From Merismopedia glauca CCAP 1448/3 (GTDB taxonomy: Bacteria > Cyanobacteriota > Cyanobacteriia > Cyanobacteriales > CCAP-1448): a DNA stretch of 46,489 nt. The stretch is from the NCBI RefSeq assembly GCF_003003775.1, contig NZ_PVWJ01000027.1:1-46489 (forward strand), in the 5' to 3' direction. How positions within the stretch are numbered: position 1 is the stretch's first letter; every line of letters starts with the position of its first letter. Below, piece by piece: positions 2,988 to 22,751 of this stretch. Both the position numbers and the translations under genes were made by a program. Under the pieces are notes generated by a model. That model searched no databases. It saw only the letters and a program-made list of their open reading frames with translations, and was not told the DNA's origin.

Positions 2988-3093
2988 TAGGGAGCGGAGG
3001 GGCGGAGGAGCGGAGGAGCAGGAGGAGCAGAGGAGCGGAGGAGCAGAGGGGCGGAGGAGCGGAGGAGCGGAGGAGCGGAGGAGCAGGAGGAGA
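2988..3093. repeat. G-rich imperfect tandem repeat between the two receptor genes
   Basis: About 105 bases made of irregular copies of GGAGCGGAGGAGCAG-type units, nearly all purine on the plus strand. It sits in the gap between the two chemoreceptor genes, so it would lie in the transcribed leader of the second gene. There the RNA would be C/U-rich with many CCUCC motifs. Copy number is likely to vary between strains. Confidence 0.85.
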
Positions 3094-3149
3094 GTTTATT
3101 TATTTCCGCCGCGATGTACTAAGCTACTGTCTCAAGAAAAATTGCATAT

Positions 3150-3188
3150 TTCCTTCCTTCTTCCTTTTTCCTTCTTCCTTCTTCCTTC
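3150..3188. repeat. Heptamer short tandem repeat (CTTCCTT)n
   Basis: About five imperfect copies of CTTCCTT (AAGGAAG on the other strand) abut and slightly enter the stop codon of the upstream receptor gene (stop at 3187-3189). The same heptamer family recurs at 29680-29712 and 32296-32343. It resembles the short tandemly repeated repetitive sequences known from filamentous cyanobacteria. Confidence 0.8.
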
Positions 3189-5994
3189 AACTAACTTTAA
3201 ATTGACCTGCACTTGCTTGGAGTTGCTCAGCTAAGGATAGAAGATCTTGGAAAGCGGTAGAAACATTAGCGGCTTCTTGGGATGTTTGGTTGGAGATGGC
3301 AGCTACATCAGTCATACTTTGAGCGACAGATTCTGATGCTACTGATTGAGTTACTGTCGTTTGGGCAATTTCTTGCACCAATTGCTCGATATAGTTACTA
3401 ACCTCCACAATTTTATTTAAGTTTTGGCGAGTTTCATCGGCTAGTTGCGTTCCTTTAAGCACTTCCCGATTACCTATAGCCATTGCAGCAACTAGTTCTT
3501 TGGTTTCTTTCTGAATTTCTTCGATAATATTTTCAATTTCGACGGTAGCTGCGCTAGATTGTCTAGCTAGGTTACCAACTTCGTCTGCAACCACTGCAAA
3601 GCCTCTCCCTTCTTCTCCGGCTCTAGCTGCCTCAATTGCCGCATTTAGAGCTAATAGGTTGGTTTGTTCGGCAAATCCGCTAATCACACCGACTACTTTG
3701 GAGATTTTTTCGGAAGCGATACCTAGTTGCTGCACTTTAGTGGAGGTATCGGTTACGGTTTGTTGGATTGCCAAAATTCCTTCTACTGTGCGGTTTAGAG
3801 AAGCATCACCAGCAGCTACGGTGGCTGTAGCTTGTTTCACGGCTATGGCGGCTTGTTGCACGTTACTGCTAACTTTCCGAATTGATGCCGACATCTCTTG
3901 AATCCGTTGCAGAGCTTGGTCAATTTCTATAGTTTGTCTGATGGCTCCATCAGAGAGATCTTGGACTAATTCTTGGTTACTACTGGTAGTCGAGGTCATT
4001 TGCTGGGCAGTTTCTTGCACTTGAGTGACAACTTTCCGCAAACTAGCTACCATTGCATTGTAAGAGTCAGCGATAGTCCCGATTTCATCTTCAGTCACCT
4101 TGGCGCGAATGGTTAAATCTCCCTGACTGATGGGATCTACTTCCATCAGTAGTTCTAAGGCTCGACTTTGCAGTCTTTCTTTACCTTGTTTTTGTTGTTC
4201 TAAAGAGTTGGCGCGATCGACGGCAAATCCGACTTGAATGGCTAGTTGGGAGAATAGATCGATATCATTTTGACTCCAGAGGCGAGGAGCATCGCATTGA
4301 TGAGCGACTAATAATCCTAATAGTTGCCGTTCTTCCCCTAAAACGATGGGAGCAACTAGATTAGCTTTGACACCAAATGGTTCTAGCTGTTTGAGGTGAC
4401 AAGCGGTTAATCCGGCTTCGCAAATGTTAGGAGTAGCTTGTACCCTACCTTCACGGTATTTTTCGACGTATCTGTCAGCAAAACATGGATCGGCGATTTG
4501 GGCACCCAAAGCTTTGGGATAGCCATCGGCTACCGATTCGGCGACGATGCTTCCTTTCCATTCAAGATCGAATAGATAGACAATGACACGACTGGCAGCT
4601 AGAGCATGACGAATTTCTGTAATGGCTAGATTGAAAATTAGATCGGTTTGGGGATATTTTCCGAGTTTAGTGGTAATTTCTTTAATTAATTGGTATCTTT
4701 CGGCTTCATACTGTTTTTGGCTGAGCAAGTCTTTAATTTGCCCTGACATTTGGTTAATACTTCCAGCCAGAATTGCCCTTTCATCATTTCCAGTTACGGG
4801 AAGAACTGTATCTAAATCTCCTTGTCCGATTTGTTGAACGGCGTTGGTGGTTTCTTCTAAGAATTTCGTACTGCGATTGACTAGGTAAGCTGTGAGCAAG
4901 GAAACTAGAGCCGCCATCAGGGTTGTCCCTCCCAAAAGAGTCAATAGCAATCTCTGCTGGGGTTCAAATAACTTGTTGCTAGGAGTAATGACAACACCTT
5001 TCCAATCTAGGTTATAGGGAGATTCTTCTAGTTCTTCTACGTGTGCTTGGGTAACTACCTGATTTGAAGTTATCTGACTAAATGCTTCATGTCCTATATC
5101 TTGAGATATATTAGGGAATTTCTGTTTGATATTTTGTTTAACTAGCGACTCTTGATTACTTAAGAAGATTTGCCCTTTACCATCTACCAAAAATACTGTT
5201 TTACCGTCTTTCTGATACTGGTCTAATAAGTCATCCATGACTTCTACAGGGAAACGCATTCGGACTAGTCCAATTAAGGCACCTGTTTTTTTATCCTGAA
5301 GAGGCGCGCCTATTTCCATACTCATTTTCTTTGTCCAGTTAGAAAAGTATGGATTTAGGAAAACTACGCTTTTAGTATTAATGATTTTCTGGTGGAAGGA
5401 ACTATTTTGACTGTGATTATAAGATTGACCAAACTTATCTTTGGCTTCAGATTGAGCAATGACATTACCATTTAGATCGAAGACAGCAATGCGATCGTAT
5501 ATATCTTCGTTACCAACATATTGAGTCAAAAACTCATTTTTTTCCTGTGGTGAGATAGATTGAGAAATTTTAGGATTGGCAAAAATTTCGAGATTAGTTA
5601 AAGATTTAGCATCTCGGTAGCGATCGCCAATAAACAATTCGATTTTATCGTTTAAGTTAACTACTGTAGATTTTTCATTCTCAAGTACTTGCTTCGTCAA
5701 GGATTGATTGGCAAAGTAATAGGCGATACTTCCCACTAACATAATAGGAAGAGTACTCAGCGCGATCGCCCAAGCAGTGGCTTTTTTGCGTAAACCGAAT
5801 TTGGGGGGGTTAATTGCTAAACTTCTGGCTCTTGGTTCGACTAAATCTTTGGACTCACGATCTAATGGCTTTGGTGCGTCTATTGGCTCATCTTCAAATA
5901 GTAAATGGTCGAGGGACTCGTCCTCATTAAATAGAGATTTATTGTCGTTTAACTGACTAGAGTCAGGGGTGCGATTTATAGAAGGTTCAAGCAT
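3187..5994 (-). CDS. pilJ: Methyl-accepting chemotaxis protein, PilJ/PixJ-like
   Basis: 935 aa. Order of parts: an acidic cytoplasmic head (1-70), TM1 (about 73-95), a double-Cache-like periplasmic region (about 100-345), TM2 (about 349-372), HAMP (372-425), GAF (about 438-600), a second HAMP-like segment and the MCP signalling domain (about 660-935) with [12 protein letters not shown] at its tip. The GAF domain carries D502-P-C504-F and C532-H533, the two cysteines of DXCF cyanobacteriochromes, spaced by 28 as in TePixJ. It should sit in the inner membrane at the pili and signal through CheW to a CheA lying outside the window. It is a paralogue of the following receptor. PilJ-type GAF domains need not bind bilin, so photoreception is a hypothesis. 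Confidence 0.93.
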
Positions 5995-16658: not shown

Positions 16659-18932
16659 TCAATCAACCCAATGGCTAGAATTTACAAAAGATCTAGCAAT
16701 TATTGATTGAGATAATAAAGATACTAAACTACCCGGTTTATTGGCTATTTCTGGAAATGGATAATTTTTGGGAAAAGCTTTAGTTATTTGATGGCGAACT
16801 CTAGCAGCTTCATAAGGTAAATTTTTGGCTGCTAAATCTCTGGCAATACTGTCAATGATTTGGCTATATTGTTCGGGTTCGTTCTCTTTCAGTTCTTGAG
16901 CAATAGATACTGCTTTCCAAGAATGATGCATAGCTCTTAATAATAAACATTGCAAAGGAATATAAGGAGTTTTGGCTAATTCTGATTCCAGATGGCTGAG
17001 AGAATGAAATTGGAGATAAGCGATCGCTTTTTGTTCCCATTGATATAACTGATCTCCCTCAATTCCTGCTAACTCTAAAGCTGAATAAGTATCCCAATAA
17101 ATATATCCACTTTTACAGCGTTTTAATAATAGTTTTTTGACATTATCAGGAATTTGATTCACTTCAATATCACTAGCAACTTCCGTAATCCAACTAATAG
17201 CAATATATGGATCTATTGGCAAACAATTTTTAAAATATCCTCTGCCTACTCGTTCAATTTCAGCCGTAGTTGCTACAATTAATAACCGCGACCTAGCACG
17301 AGTTAACATGGTATACCATTGAAAACTTTCTGCTAAAGATGGTTTACCAGTTCCTGTAAATAAATTAAAAGCAATACAAGCCTCAAATTCTCTCCCTTTA
17401 GCGGCTTCTGCATTTAGCATAATTAAGTTCTCATTTCCTGCACTAGAATGAGGGGAAATTACTTTAATTGCATTGGCTAAATCTCTAAGTAAGTATCTTT
17501 GATTTTCTGGTTGAGTAGTTTCTTGTACTAACTGGCATAAAAAATCCCACGCTTCATGATTAGAGGGGAATTCTAACAATCTCACAGGTTCGCCTACTTC
17601 TATTCCTAATTTGGCTTCCCCAGGTGCGGGTAACTTTCTTCCACCATAGCTTTTAGCAATTTCTAGAAATTGGTTAGCGAACTCTAAAATCTTTTGAGAA
17701 TTGCGGTAGTTATAGCTGAGACAAATCTCTTTTCCTAACTTAAGTTTATCCCAATGAAACCCAGTTGGTTGAATTCGTTGGTTCAGATCTCCTAAGATTA
17801 AACTAGTCGTTTCATGTCCTAAATTTCTCCAGTGTTTACCTAACTGGAATAAAGTAGTAATCTCTGCTAATAGTAAGTCTTGCGCTTCATCCACAATGAT
17901 AATAGTTTGCTGGCGATCGGTAGAAGGTGATGGTAGTTTTTCTTGCAAACTATTAGCCGCAGCTACTCGGCACAAGTAACCATCTAATGCAGATTCCCAC
18001 CAATCAGGTTTAATCTGTTTAAGTACTTCAATCCGTTCTTGATTAGCTTGAAAAAATATTTCTTTAGATAGCTGTGTGCGGGAGTTATCTAAAACAAAAG
18101 CTTGGTAGAGTAAAACATCTTGCATTTCTAAATTAGCCAGCTTGCGTTTGTAGTTATTAGAAACTCTCCTAGCCGCAGTTTTCAAGGCTGATAATTCTTG
18201 TTGTGGCGAAGCAATCTGAGCATACTTTAAGTTACTGTTGAGCCAATTGGGAAATGTCCCCAACCAAAATCCTGGCTGTTTAATTTGTTGCTTCAATTGG
18301 GCATATTTTTTGATGTCTTCTACTAATTTATCGGGAACAATAAAAATAATTTGACATCCTTGTTGATGTAATCTTGATGCCAATAAAGCCGCGCAAACAG
18401 TTTTACCAGTTCCAGGGGCACTTTGCACTAAAAGAGTACCATAATGATTTTGATAATTGCTTAAATTATGCAAGAGATAGTCATAAATTTTTTCTTGTTC
18501 TGAAGTTAAAATTGGGGAGTAGCGATAACCTCCATAAACAAATTGATACCAATATTCTTCTTCCTGAAAATTCCACTGATATTGAGGGGTGTTAGCCACA
18601 TTAACAGCTTCGGAATCGGTAGATTTTAAGGTTTGATAGAATAAGTTAAGATGAGGAGAATTATAAACTTTACGATTTTGCCAAGATTCTCGATAAATAT
18701 CTCGTCGATAGCCAACTTTAATAATAATAATATCTTGCCGATCTCTTTTCCAAACAACTCTTAAATCGCCACTACGAGTGCGGAGTAATCCTTCAAAACC
18801 TTCTAGGGATTTAGTATCGCGTAAGTCATCTTGACTGAGGCGTTTCAACACAATTTGGACTTTGCCAAAATCATCGTGAGATAGTTTTTGTAAATCTCTT
18901 AAAGCTGCCCGAATTATCCTAACGCCAGCCAT
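16659..18932 (-). CDS. SF1 (UvrD/PcrA-like) helicase with N-terminal RelE/ParE-like domain
   Basis: 757 aa. Residues 1-90 have the RelE/ParE pattern: a helical start (ALRDLQKLSHDDFGKV), then GDLRVVWKRDRQDIIIIKVGYRRDIYRE, the strand-turn-strand end of that toxin superfamily. A linker with aromatic residues leads to an SF1 core with APGTGKT (172-178), DEAQD (348-352), motif III GDLNQRIQP, motif IV YNYRNS, motif V NAEAAKGREFEA and motif VI LTRARSR (543-549). All helicase motifs look intact. Residues 570-757 are a helical domain I cannot name. No antitoxin gene lies nearby. The downstream partner is the coiled-coil membrane protein. Such fusions exist in databases but I know of no described function; anti-phage defence is a reasonable guess. 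Confidence 0.88.
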   Translation of the reverse strand: MAGVRIIRAALRDLQKLSHDDFGKVQIVLKRLSQDDLRDTKSLEGFEGLLRTRSGDLRVVWKRDRQDIIIIKVGYRRDIYRESWQNRKVYNSPHLNLFYQTLKSTDSEAVNVANTPQYQWNFQEEEYWYQFVYGGYRYSPILTSEQEKIYDYLLHNLSNYQNHYGTLLVQSAPGTGKTVCAALLASRLHQQGCQIIFIVPDKLVEDIKKYAQLKQQIKQPGFWLGTFPNWLNSNLKYAQIASPQQELSALKTAARRVSNNYKRKLANLEMQDVLLYQAFVLDNSRTQLSKEIFFQANQERIEVLKQIKPDWWESALDGYLCRVAAANSLQEKLPSPSTDRQQTIIIVDEAQDLLLAEITTLFQLGKHWRNLGHETTSLILGDLNQRIQPTGFHWDKLKLGKEICLSYNYRNSQKILEFANQFLEIAKSYGGRKLPAPGEAKLGIEVGEPVRLLEFPSNHEAWDFLCQLVQETTQPENQRYLLRDLANAIKVISPHSSAGNENLIMLNAEAAKGREFEACIAFNLFTGTGKPSLAESFQWYTMLTRARSRLLIVATTAEIERVGRGYFKNCLPIDPYIAISWITEVASDIEVNQIPDNVKKLLLKRCKSGYIYWDTYSALELAGIEGDQLYQWEQKAIAYLQFHSLSHLESELAKTPYIPLQCLLLRAMHHSWKAVSIAQELKENEPEQYSQIIDSIARDLAAKNLPYEAARVRHQITKAFPKNYPFPEIANKPGSLVSLLSQSIIARSFVNSSHWVD

Positions 18933-20246: not shown

Positions 20247-20612
20247 TCATGTTGAGAGATGATCTAGATCTAGGCGATCGCTCTCAACATACTCTTTGGC
20301 TGTTATATCTTCTAAAGATACTACCAAAGCTTCTATTGACTGGAATCGTCCAGATTCAGGGAGCAATTTCAACCATTGTTCGAGAAGTCGATCCCATCCC
20401 ACACCTTGAAATTGGTTTTGTTCCTCTTCTCTAATAAACCAAAACATTAGTTCAATTTCATCAGCATTCCAAGAAGGAGACGCACGTACTTTAATTTCAC
20501 GTAGAGCGCGCAGTGCTTCTCCTTCAGAGCTTGATTTATTATGCTTATCTTGCATTCGATTCTGAAGCTTTTCTGCCAATTTAATAAAATCATCAGGAAA
20601 AGCAAATCTCAC
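20247..20612 (-). pseudogene. C-terminal part of a split gene (continues the QTCDI protein)
   Basis: 121 codons from a GTG at 20612, in the same reading frame as the upstream part. Between the TAA at 20649-20651 and this GTG the frame stays open and reads LRALGEALARKR, continuing smoothly into VRFAFPDDF. No ATG and no ribosome site are visible. The simplest reading is that 21086-20247 was one gene of about 279 codons, cut by a single nonsense change at codon 146 (for example GAA or CAA to TAA). Visible content: KRVRFAFPDDF, then KHNKSS and a strand-rich region ALREIKVRASPSW. Function unknown. Sequencing error or recoding cannot be excluded. Confidence 0.65.
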
Positions 20613-20648
20613 TCGTTTGCGTGCTAATGCTTCACCTAATGCTCTAAG

Positions 20649-21086
20649 TTATTCATCATTTCGACATCCCGATGTACGTTCCCATGCAGCAACGACAGCT
20701 TTTTCTACTGTCATCACGCGATCGAGATCTGCAACTAGATTAAGCTCGGCAATTCCTGGAATATAAGCATACTGAGGTCGTCTACTTTTTTGAATCTCAG
20801 ACAATAGTTGTATCTCAACCTGAAAAAGAGGGGCAACTTCTATAAACGGACGCTGTTTACAACTGCGAACAATATCGCAAGTTTGGGTAATTACAACTAA
20901 ACCTGGAACCTCATCCTCTGCAAGATCGATTCCTTCTCTTGCAGCTTCTTCAGATGCCTGTGTCAAAGGTTGATGAGGATTGCAACGTTGGACAAAGAAA
21001 TGTTCTCCAAGCACACAATCCCCCTGACACCATTGCTTGAGAGCAGCATCTACTTCCTCAATCCAAGTATCGTCTTCATTTTCCAC
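20649..21086 (-). CDS. QTCDI-motif protein, N-terminal part (gene split by TAA)
   Basis: 145 codons from the GTG at 21086, overlapping the end of the HTH gene by 11 bases. It has six cysteines (20, 24, 35, 70, 76, 141) and the motif Q68-T-C-D-I-V-R-S-C76 after a hydrophobic strand VPGLVVIT. The C20-C24-C35 spacing could bind metal. I do not recognise a named family, although proteins with VxxQTCDIxR occur sporadically in bacterial accessory regions. The frame stops at TAA 20649-20651 and resumes at once (see 20247-20612). Third gene of the TIGR04255-HTH operon, translationally coupled by overlap. Confidence 0.7.
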   Translation of the reverse strand: MENEDDTWIEEVDAALKQWCQGDCVLGEHFFVQRCNPHQPLTQASEEAAREGIDLAEDEVPGLVVITQTCDIVRSCKQRPFIEVAPLFQVEIQLLSEIQKSRRPQYAYIPGIAELNLVADLDRVMTVEKAVVAAWERTSGCRNDE

Positions 21087-21759
21087 TGCTATTTTTGCGA
21101 CTCCTTACAGATCTAGCAGGTTTGGATCGTCCAACTTCCCGGTGAATAGGCTCTTGTAAAGCATCAACTAGATCTGCTGGATTTAATGGTCTACGTGAAG
21201 CACGAGCATCTTCAGATAAAGGTTTAAGTTGTGGTCTAGGAGGTGCATTACCTACCCCAACAATTCTTTTTACTTCTTCGTATTTACCAGCCACTAATAA
21301 ATCAAACGGCAGTGTTCCATCACTACTATTCGTGAATAATACATTGCGATTCAGACTGGCACTACCTCGATTGATGTATTTAATAGCATCTAACAATCGG
21401 TTGAGATGTTCTTCATTAAAACTATTTAATGGTTGTCCACTTGCCCAAAAATGAAGACTTCTACGTGAAACATTAAAAAGTTTAGCAAGCTGCTCCCAAG
21501 TTAATCCGCTCAATCTTCTCAGTTCGTTCAAAGCTTTTTGCGTTACTTCTGTAGAACTGATTGAAGGTAGAGTAACCCCACTTGTTGTCATATCTAAAGC
21601 TGCTAATAGATATCCCTGAACATTTGTTATGGAAGTACTGGTGCTGGGAGCTATTAAAGTTCTCGAATAAGTAACCGGATTAGTCTTAAAATTACCCATA
21701 GCTCCAAGTGCAGAAGTACTAGATAATCTATCAAGCTTTCTATCTAAAAAAGTATTCAT
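21076..21759 (-). CDS. Helix-turn-helix DNA-binding protein
   Basis: 227 aa. A low-complexity Ser/Thr-rich head (1-70) precedes an XRE-like helix-turn-helix at about 75-112 (LNELRRLSGLTWEQLAKLFN, then VSRRSLHFWASGQP). The next part, LNRLLDAIKYI...DGTLPFDLLVAGKYEEVKRIVG (about 119-168), recalls the partner-binding tail of Xre/MbcA-type antitoxins. A basic, Arg/Lys-rich C-terminus follows. The ATG overlaps the TGA of the TIGR04255 gene by four bases (ATGA), and its own stop overlaps the next gene, so the three are translationally coupled. Probably the operon's autorepressor, acting at the palindrome 22610-22625. An antitoxin role is possible but unproven. Confidence 0.82.
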   Translation of the reverse strand: MNTFLDRKLDRLSSTSALGAMGNFKTNPVTYSRTLIAPSTSTSITNVQGYLLAALDMTTSGVTLPSISSTEVTQKALNELRRLSGLTWEQLAKLFNVSRRSLHFWASGQPLNSFNEEHLNRLLDAIKYINRGSASLNRNVLFTNSSDGTLPFDLLVAGKYEEVKRIVGVGNAPPRPQLKPLSEDARASRRPLNPADLVDALQEPIHREVGRSKPARSVRSRKNSSGK

Positions 21760-22550
21760 AGTTCACCGCCAAAGCGTCGCAAAAATTCATCCTGAATCGC
21801 CCATCGAAAAAACGTATAAAGTCTCTCAGAAAAGTAATTTCCTTCCTTTATCAGTCCTTCAACGCTGAATTCTCGGTTTTTAGCCAGTGACATATCTAAA
21901 TCGAGTATCCAGCTAGCTTCAGCAATGGGTTCTATTGCATCTGGATCGAAAGTTACACCAGTGGGTATAAGTCCCCATCTTGCAGTAATTTTCTCTTCTC
22001 CATCTGGCATAATAAACAAAGATTCATTAATAGTTTGATGAGTAAAATCAGCCGCAGCTATCCCAGCAATTTCTGGTTTGACTAATGAAGATATATCTGT
22101 TAAATTTTGACCAACCAGTCTATCAATATATCGCAATCCAAATCGTTGAACATCTGGATGAAAAGCTTCGTTAACTGCTGTGAGTATACTTTGTAAACGC
22201 TCTAAAAAATCACTGCGACTTAAGTAAGCGGTAGTTTCAAGTGCCACAAAGTTAGGAGCTAATGAAACTCGCCAACTAGCCGTTGTATTGAGAAATCGCC
22301 AAGTAACTTGGGGTGCAATAGGAACGATACCTTGAGGGCTAAAAGCAAAACTATGGGTTTGTTGAGGTTGCAAGATCGGATATTTGTCCCGTATTGCTTC
22401 TTGAAATGAACCCACAAAATCTTTTTTTTCAATGGAAACAATAGGTGAAAACATTACCTGTGCGATTACTCGAACTAGAGGCGCATTTTTTAATGGCACC
22501 TCTTGAGGTGGCTTAGCAGTAAGTGGATTAGTATCAACCACTTTCTTCAT
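21756..22550 (-). CDS. TIGR04255 family protein
   Basis: 264 aa. The start PLKNAPLVRVIAQVMFSPI and the later FGLRYIDRL fit the sporadically distributed TIGR04255 family, whose function is unknown. No membrane segment or signal peptide; mixed alpha/beta and probably cytoplasmic. First gene of a tightly overlapping operon with an HTH protein and the QTCDI protein. A GAGG lies right against the ATG at 22550, an unusually short spacing. Scattered taxonomic distribution plus an attached regulator is the usual look of a mobile defence or conflict module, but this is inference. Confidence 0.8.
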   Translation of the reverse strand: MKKVVDTNPLTAKPPQEVPLKNAPLVRVIAQVMFSPIVSIEKKDFVGSFQEAIRDKYPILQPQQTHSFAFSPQGIVPIAPQVTWRFLNTTASWRVSLAPNFVALETTAYLSRSDFLERLQSILTAVNEAFHPDVQRFGLRYIDRLVGQNLTDISSLVKPEIAGIAAADFTHQTINESLFIMPDGEEKITARWGLIPTGVTFDPDAIEPIAEASWILDLDMSLAKNREFSVEGLIKEGNYFSERLYTFFRWAIQDEFLRRFGGEL

Positions 22551-22609
22551 CCTCGATTAAGCTTTGAAACGAATTGTTCACGATCGCACACAAGTGATAA
22601 TCCTAATAC

Positions 22610-22625
22610 TTGCATTTTAATGCAA
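22610..22625 (-). promoter_or_regulatory. Palindromic operator-like site upstream of TIGR04255 operon
   Basis: TTGCATTTTAATGCAA has perfect seven-base arms, 60 bases before the operon start. On the minus strand its first TTGCAT could be a -35 box with GATTAT as the -10 box 17 bases later. A repressor bound here, most simply the HTH protein of the same operon, would block transcription. Inferred from sequence only. Confidence 0.55.
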
Positions 22626-22751
22626 CTATGTGAAGTATAGTGTGAAGTTATAAAAAATTTATGAGAGTACCTGCATATTCATAGCAGCACTAATATTACT
22701 CTGGTAGTAGAGTTGCTGCTGTTGGCGATCGCGCTAGGATCGCCAATCTTA

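What the first reader, a model, noticed from the sequence alone, without database searches (positions are those of the whole stretch)
20247..22625. TIGR04255-HTH-QTCDI operon with its own palindromic operator
Three genes are joined by overlaps (ATGA, then an 11-base overlap), and a perfect seven-base-arm palindrome lies where the promoter should be. TIGR04255 is known only as sporadically distributed, and the third protein has a cysteine-rich QTCDIVRSC motif without a named function. Scattered distribution, a dedicated regulator and tight coupling suggest a mobile self-regulated module, possibly defence or toxin-antitoxin.
Basis: partly seen in the sequence, partly recalled or inferred. Interest (0 to 1): 0.65.

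Follow-up and report, generated by a model that had tools for sequence, protein, structure and literature searches.

The report
Three-gene toxin-antitoxin-like operon, toxin gene broken
A cyanobacterium carries a widespread but undescribed three-gene cassette whose third protein is predicted to fold like the bacterial self-poisons MazF and CcdB and whose promoter carries a repeated DNA sequence kept across many phyla; in this genome the poison-like gene is cut short by a stop codon.

Summary
The three genes and the palindrome are real, but two details change. (1) The "QTCDI" gene is only the first half of a 279-codon gene: an in-frame TAA (20649-20651) interrupts a frame that continues to 20247 and is intact in most relatives. 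(2) The palindrome is not the operator. It occurs in none of the homologous operons and lies on the -10 box. What is conserved is a tandem direct repeat, TTCACA-N6-TTCACA (22629-22646): exact in 31 of 44 operons from Cyanobacteria to Alphaproteobacteria, where shuffled sequence gives none. Other HTH-bearing TIGR04255 cassettes carry their own 12-bp-period repeats.

The order TIGR04255-HTH-QTCDI recurs in about 45 loci of several phyla, some on conjugative plasmids. The third protein has no sequence match in Pfam, PADLOC or the PDB, but its AlphaFold model (pLDDT 92) resembles MazF/CcdB toxins (Z up to 9.7). Its invariant QTCD motif is not a MazF motif. Where only one gene is broken, it is usually the third (9 of 11).

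Best reading: a mobile, self-regulated, toxin-antitoxin-like module, with the third gene as toxin or effector, the HTH protein as operator-binding regulator and TIGR04255 as likely neutraliser. Toxicity, neutralisation and DNA binding are untested.

The parts
21756..22550 (-). gene 1: TIGR04255 family protein, 264 aa, intact
   Evidence: TIGR04255.1 149 bits; 35-sequence alignment A3; AlphaFold pLDDT 91.3
21076..21759 (-). gene 2: HTH protein (Xre-like; nearest solved structures are HigA-2 and MbcA antitoxins), 227 aa, intact; predicted to bind the operator
   Evidence: HTH_3 E 2.2e-4 below cut-off; profile hits HigA-2 E 1.6e-4 and MbcA E 1.6e-3; alignment A4
20649..21086 (-). gene 3, 5' part: holds WxQGD and QTCDI motifs; ends at an in-frame TAA (20649-20651)
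20247..20648 (-). gene 3, 3' part in the same frame beyond the premature stop; still conserved against intact relatives, no further stop until 20247
22629..22646 (-). operator: tandem direct repeat TTCACA-N6-TTCACA, read on the minus strand as TTCACACTATACTTCACA
   Evidence: exact in 31 of 44 homologous upstream regions, at most 1 mismatch in 38 of 44; shuffles expect 0 and 0.1; only copy in the genome
22614..22619 (-). putative -10 box TAAAAT, 9 nt downstream of the operator
   Evidence: TA..AT-like box at 8-9 nt from the repeat in most cyanobacterial operons
   Evidence: not found upstream of other operons; overlaps the -10 box

Best explanation
The locus is a horizontally moving, autoregulated, three-component toxin-antitoxin-like operon. 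Gene 3 encodes a toxin or effector with a MazF/CcdB-like N-terminal domain plus an extra C-terminal domain. Gene 2 is the HTH repressor that binds two direct TTCACA repeats, 12 bp apart, next to the -10 box. Gene 1 (TIGR04255), the part common to all cassettes whatever their other genes, is the most likely neutralising or sensing partner. In this genome the effector has been inactivated by a nonsense codon while genes 1 and 2 and the operator remain intact. Shown here: gene order, operator conservation, nonsense codon, predicted fold, pattern of decay. Inferred: toxicity, which protein neutralises it, DNA binding, and what triggers it.
For: Three-gene order recurs in about 45 loci from Cyanobacteria, Gemmatimonas, Thiocapsa, Deltaproteobacteria, Acidobacteria, Rokubacteria, Thermoleophilia, Alphaproteobacteria and others; pairwise distances of the three proteins correlate at r 0.90-0.95. 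Operator exact in 31 of 44, only with a 6-nt spacer; distinct period-12 repeats in 6 of 7 other HTH-bearing cassettes and no comparable one in 18 cassettes without an HTH middle gene. Third protein: Foldseek top hit MazF-mt1 (probability 1.00, E 2.8e-3); the 42 best VIA-align rows are all MazF or CcdB-type toxins, Z 9.7-8.0, 102 of 105 residues of MazF-mt3 aligned at 2.8 A. HTH protein nearest to HigA-2 and MbcA antitoxins. Single-gene breakage: gene 3 in 9 of 11 cases (window, L040, L042, L082, L094, L095, L098, L099, L111) against gene 1 in 2 (L091, L096); p 0.003 against gene length. Another TIGR04255 cassette (L070) has a HEPN-domain third gene. Copies on conjugative plasmids.
Against: No sequence similarity to MazF/PemK (hhalign probability 0.9%; no Pfam hit), and the invariant residues (WxQGD, QTCD, D121, K130 in L078 numbering) are not those of MazF, so a shared fold need not mean a shared activity. 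Z near 9 is only moderately above background for this aligner. The third gene is the last of the operon and several broken copies come from MAGs, so its decay bias may partly reflect polarity or sequencing error. In Anabaena lutea (L091) genes 2 and 3 lie without a recognisable gene 1, which argues against gene 1 being an essential antitoxin. The premature stop in the window rests on one assembly.
Confidence: 0.55

Rival explanations
1. A three-gene anti-phage defence module: gene 1 senses infection, gene 3 is an abortive effector (nuclease or other enzyme using the QTCD, D and K residues), gene 2 only controls expression.
For: Sporadic distribution (50 of 195 genomes of the order carry TIGR04255), horizontal spread, frequent effector loss, interchangeable third genes beside a constant TIGR04255; some neighbours match PADLOC models such as JetA/JetB, AbiLi and AriA.
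Against: No protein of the module matches a PADLOC model convincingly; neighbour hits are scattered and were not compared with a control; flanking genes in the window and many loci are housekeeping.
Confidence: 0.25
2. A self-regulated metabolic or stress-response operon in which the MazF-like domain is a non-toxic binding domain and TIGR04255 is an enzyme or adaptor.
For: Gene 3 shares only the fold with MazF; it has strongly conserved polar residues of its own.
Against: Patchy distribution, interphylum transfer, plasmid carriage and effector decay are untypical of metabolic operons.
Confidence: 0.15
3. In the window, the two halves of gene 3 are expressed as separate proteins (a split gene), or the stop is an assembly error, rather than the gene being dead.
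For: The 3' half is still open and conserved, with a GTG at 20612; the stop rests on one assembly.
Against: No relative was seen with the same split; many others have the gene broken at different points; the break cuts into the last helix of the MazF-like domain.
Confidence: 0.05

Closest known systems
MazF/PemK and CcdB toxins of type II toxin-antitoxin systems
   Same: Predicted N-terminal fold of gene 3 (residues about 12-163; best Z 9.7); small operon with overlapping genes and its own DNA-binding protein
   Different: No detectable sequence similarity; invariant WxQGD and QTCD motifs instead; extra C-terminal domain; two upstream genes rather than one antitoxin
Three-component toxin-antitoxin operons such as PaaR-PaaA-ParE (PMC8630535)
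   Same: Dedicated regulator gene plus a further small gene ahead of a toxin-like gene, in one operon
   Different: TIGR04255 and the QTCD family are not part of it (own knowledge); regulator is second, not first; operator is a 12-bp-period direct repeat; toxicity not shown here
TIGR04255 family (NCBIfam, function unknown)
   Same: Gene 1 is a clear member (149 bits)
   Different: The family is known only as sporadic; here it is shown to head three-gene cassettes with variable middle and third genes
Panacea-type promiscuous antitoxin (PMC8832971)
   Same: One conserved protein found beside many different toxin-like partners
   Different: Not known to be related; TIGR04255 has no shown neutralising activity; comparison rests on gene neighbourhood only

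Membership tests
TIGR04255 | NCBIfam model score above curated cut-off | tested here: met
   149 bits against 30
MazF/PemK (PF02452) | Sequence match to the family | tested here: not met
   No Pfam hit for gene 3 or homologs; hhalign probability 0.9%
MazF/PemK (PF02452) | MazF/CcdB-type barrel fold | tested here: inconclusive
   Predicted model only: Foldseek probability 1.00, E 2.8e-3; VIA Z 9.7; no experimental structure
MazF/PemK (PF02452) | RNA cleavage | not testable with these tools
   needs a biochemical assay
type II toxin-antitoxin system | Compact operon with overlapping genes, mobile | tested here: met
   4- and 11-base overlaps conserved; several phyla and plasmids
type II toxin-antitoxin system | Operator for the operon's own DNA-binding protein | tested here: inconclusive
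   Direct repeat conserved and restricted to HTH-bearing cassettes; binding itself untested
type II toxin-antitoxin system | Toxin arrests growth, partner neutralises it | not testable with these tools
   needs expression assays
known anti-phage defence system | Match to PADLOC-DB models | tested here: not met
   Only weak HTH-region hits for gene 2 (E 0.009 and 0.06), none for genes 1 and 3

The most novel reading that the evidence does not exclude
TIGR04255 is a general neutralising or sensing hub that pairs with many unrelated toxin-like effectors (a MazF-fold QTCD family, HEPN proteins and several unknown families), forming an undescribed large class of three-component toxin-antitoxin or defence cassettes, the HTH-bearing ones controlled by 12-bp-period direct-repeat operators.
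Probability: 0.35. Interest if true: 0.8.

Novelty: new variant of a known kind. Interest (0 to 1): 0.58.

Why it matters
TIGR04255 has been a named but unexplained family; no paper in the open-access library mentions it. Showing that it heads three-gene cassettes with a toxin-fold partner and a strongly conserved operator turns it into a directly testable system: the operator sequence, the candidate toxin, the candidate neutraliser and the residues to mutate are all specified. If TIGR04255 pairs with many effectors, it may label many unrecognised toxin-antitoxin or defence loci.

Tried and rejected
Palindrome as operator: rejected, absent from homologous operons. Metal site from the cysteines: the alignment keeps only one cysteine invariant (C71 of QTCD), so a cysteine cluster is not supported. 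Membership in a known defence system: no convincing PADLOC match. Sequence relation to MazF: hhalign found none. Gene 1 fold: no convincing PDB match (best Foldseek TM-scores about 0.3; VIA Z 8.2 to arginine kinase). Viral fold library for gene 3: nothing under E 0.001. Phage records: no match for genes 1 or 3, though five IMG/VR contigs hold distant gene-3 relatives. Empty-site comparison around chlI: the window's other flanking genes were not found beside chlI in the relatives fetched, except the helicase gene in one, so no clean empty site was seen. Defence-island proximity: 112 neighbours scanned, hits scattered, no control run.

Full report
Observation. The window is cyanobacterial in content (chlI-type and glgA-type genes beside the locus). 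Three minus-strand genes are present as described: TIGR04255 (21756-22550, 149 bits), an HTH protein (21076-21759) and the QTCDI ORF (20649-21086), joined by 4- and 11-base overlaps. The palindrome at 22610-22625 is exact and the only one in the genome. However, the QTCDI ORF ends at a TAA in the middle of a longer frame: reading on gives 279 residues to 20247, and relatives have that same protein without a stop (about 63-70% identity to the window's copy). The third gene of the window is therefore interrupted at codon 146 (20649-20651), within the last helix of its predicted N-terminal domain.

Conservation of the module. Searching the order and then one genome per species gave about 45 loci with the same order and strand: many cyanobacteria, but also Gemmatimonas, Thiocapsa, several Deltaproteobacteria, a Myxococcales MAG, Acidobacteria, Rokubacteria, Thermoleophilia, Alphaproteobacteria and an actinobacterial MAG. 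In 35 complete operons the 4-base and 11-base overlaps are the rule in cyanobacteria, and protein distances of the three genes correlate at r 0.90-0.95, as expected if they travel together. Gene 3 is found on six plasmids and gene 1 on ten, several conjugative.

The operator. The palindrome is missing from all other operons. Lining up the upstream regions shows instead AACTTCACACT-N-TACTTCACACT, a direct repeat of TTCACA with exactly 12-bp period. Of 44 upstream regions 31 carry TTCACA-N6-TTCACA without a mismatch and 38 with at most one; shuffled sequences give 0 and 0.1; no other spacing is enriched. The window has it exactly (22629-22646), once in the genome. A TATAAT-like -10 box follows at 8-9 nt in most cyanobacterial operons, and the window's palindrome simply straddles that box. 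More distant HTH-bearing TIGR04255 cassettes have different 12-bp-period repeats (for example AGTGTAAA in L053, L058, L061), whereas 18 cassettes whose middle gene lacks an HTH show nothing comparable. This ties the repeat to the HTH protein; binding itself was not tested.

A wider family. TIGR04255 occurs in 50 of 195 genomes of the order. In 27 of the 39 fetched TIGR04255 loci the third gene carries, or in three broken cases once carried, an [ST][HQ]xCD motif. Profile comparison shows these third genes are one superfamily: the window type against the VTQDCDL/LTQSCDL type, probability 97.8%, and against the SHDCDI type, 97.9% over the full length. The same genome carries a second such cassette on another contig (L056). 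Other cassettes have different third genes, one a HEPN protein.

The third protein. Thirty-two intact homologs give an AlphaFold model at pLDDT 92 (the model is of a Microcoleus homolog, since the window's copy is interrupted). Foldseek's best PDB match is MazF-mt1 (probability 1.00, E 2.8e-3); after re-alignment the first 42 rows are all MazF or CcdB-type toxins (Z 9.7-8.0). There is no sequence similarity to MazF, and invariant residues include W20, Q22-G23-D24, Q69-T70-C71, D121 and K130, so the activity may differ. The HTH protein is nearest to HigA-2 and MbcA antitoxins. TIGR04255 gave a confident model but no convincing fold match.

Decay. Where exactly one gene is broken, gene 3 is the one in nine cases: nonsense in the window, L082 and L098; deletions in L040 (which removes QTCDI) and L042; frameshifts in L094 and L095; a transposon-like insertion in L099; replacement of the 3' part in L111. 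Gene 1 is the one in two cases (L091 absent, L096 frameshift), gene 2 in none. Against gene length this has p 0.003. Caveats: several are MAGs, gene 3 is last in the operon, gene 1 of L095 lies off the contig, and loci were found by searching for gene 1 or gene 3. Loci that have lost more than one gene (L102, L106, L107, L109) and loci cut by contig ends were not counted. The pattern fits a costly effector beside tolerated partners.

Mechanism. The simplest account is a three-component toxin-antitoxin-like operon: HTH repressor on the tandem repeat, gene 3 as toxin or effector, TIGR04255 as neutraliser or sensor. The assignment of TIGR04255 is the weakest step and rests on its constancy across cassettes. 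A phage-defence role is possible but unsupported by PADLOC matches or by consistent neighbours.

Known work. No open-access paper in the library names TIGR04255. Three-component toxin-antitoxin operons with a separate regulator are known (PaaR-PaaA-ParE, PMC8630535), so this is a new variant of a known kind, not a new kind, until activity is shown.

Noticed in passing
L056 10960-12735 (same genome, contig C48): A second TIGR04255 cassette with a non-HTH middle gene and a short VTQDCDL third protein; intact.
   Followed up: partly
L070 5552-7342: TIGR04255 cassette whose third gene encodes a HEPN-domain protein (PF05168 above its cut-off).
   Followed up: partly
L062, L069, L072, L052: TIGR04255 cassettes with another conserved third family of about 175 aa without any Pfam match and a middle gene with weak HEAT-repeat similarity.
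   Followed up: no
L099 1446-4876: Third gene split by an insertion of about 2.6 kb that looks like a transposable element (IS21-type by eye), direct evidence of inactivation by insertion.
   Followed up: partly
window 16659-18932: 757-aa protein with a helicase-like region (ResIII/UvrD-like Pfam matches) whose first 80 residues look RelE/ParE-like by eye; next to chlI.
   Followed up: no
L101 2011-5846: In a Desulfovibrio MAG a further HTH copy (about 3054-3458) lies between gene 1 and gene 2, suggesting duplication within the cassette.
   Followed up: no
L058 3147-3947: SHDCDI-type third protein matches phrog_34320 (unknown function, E 3.8e-9), so phages or prophages carry a relative.
   Followed up: no
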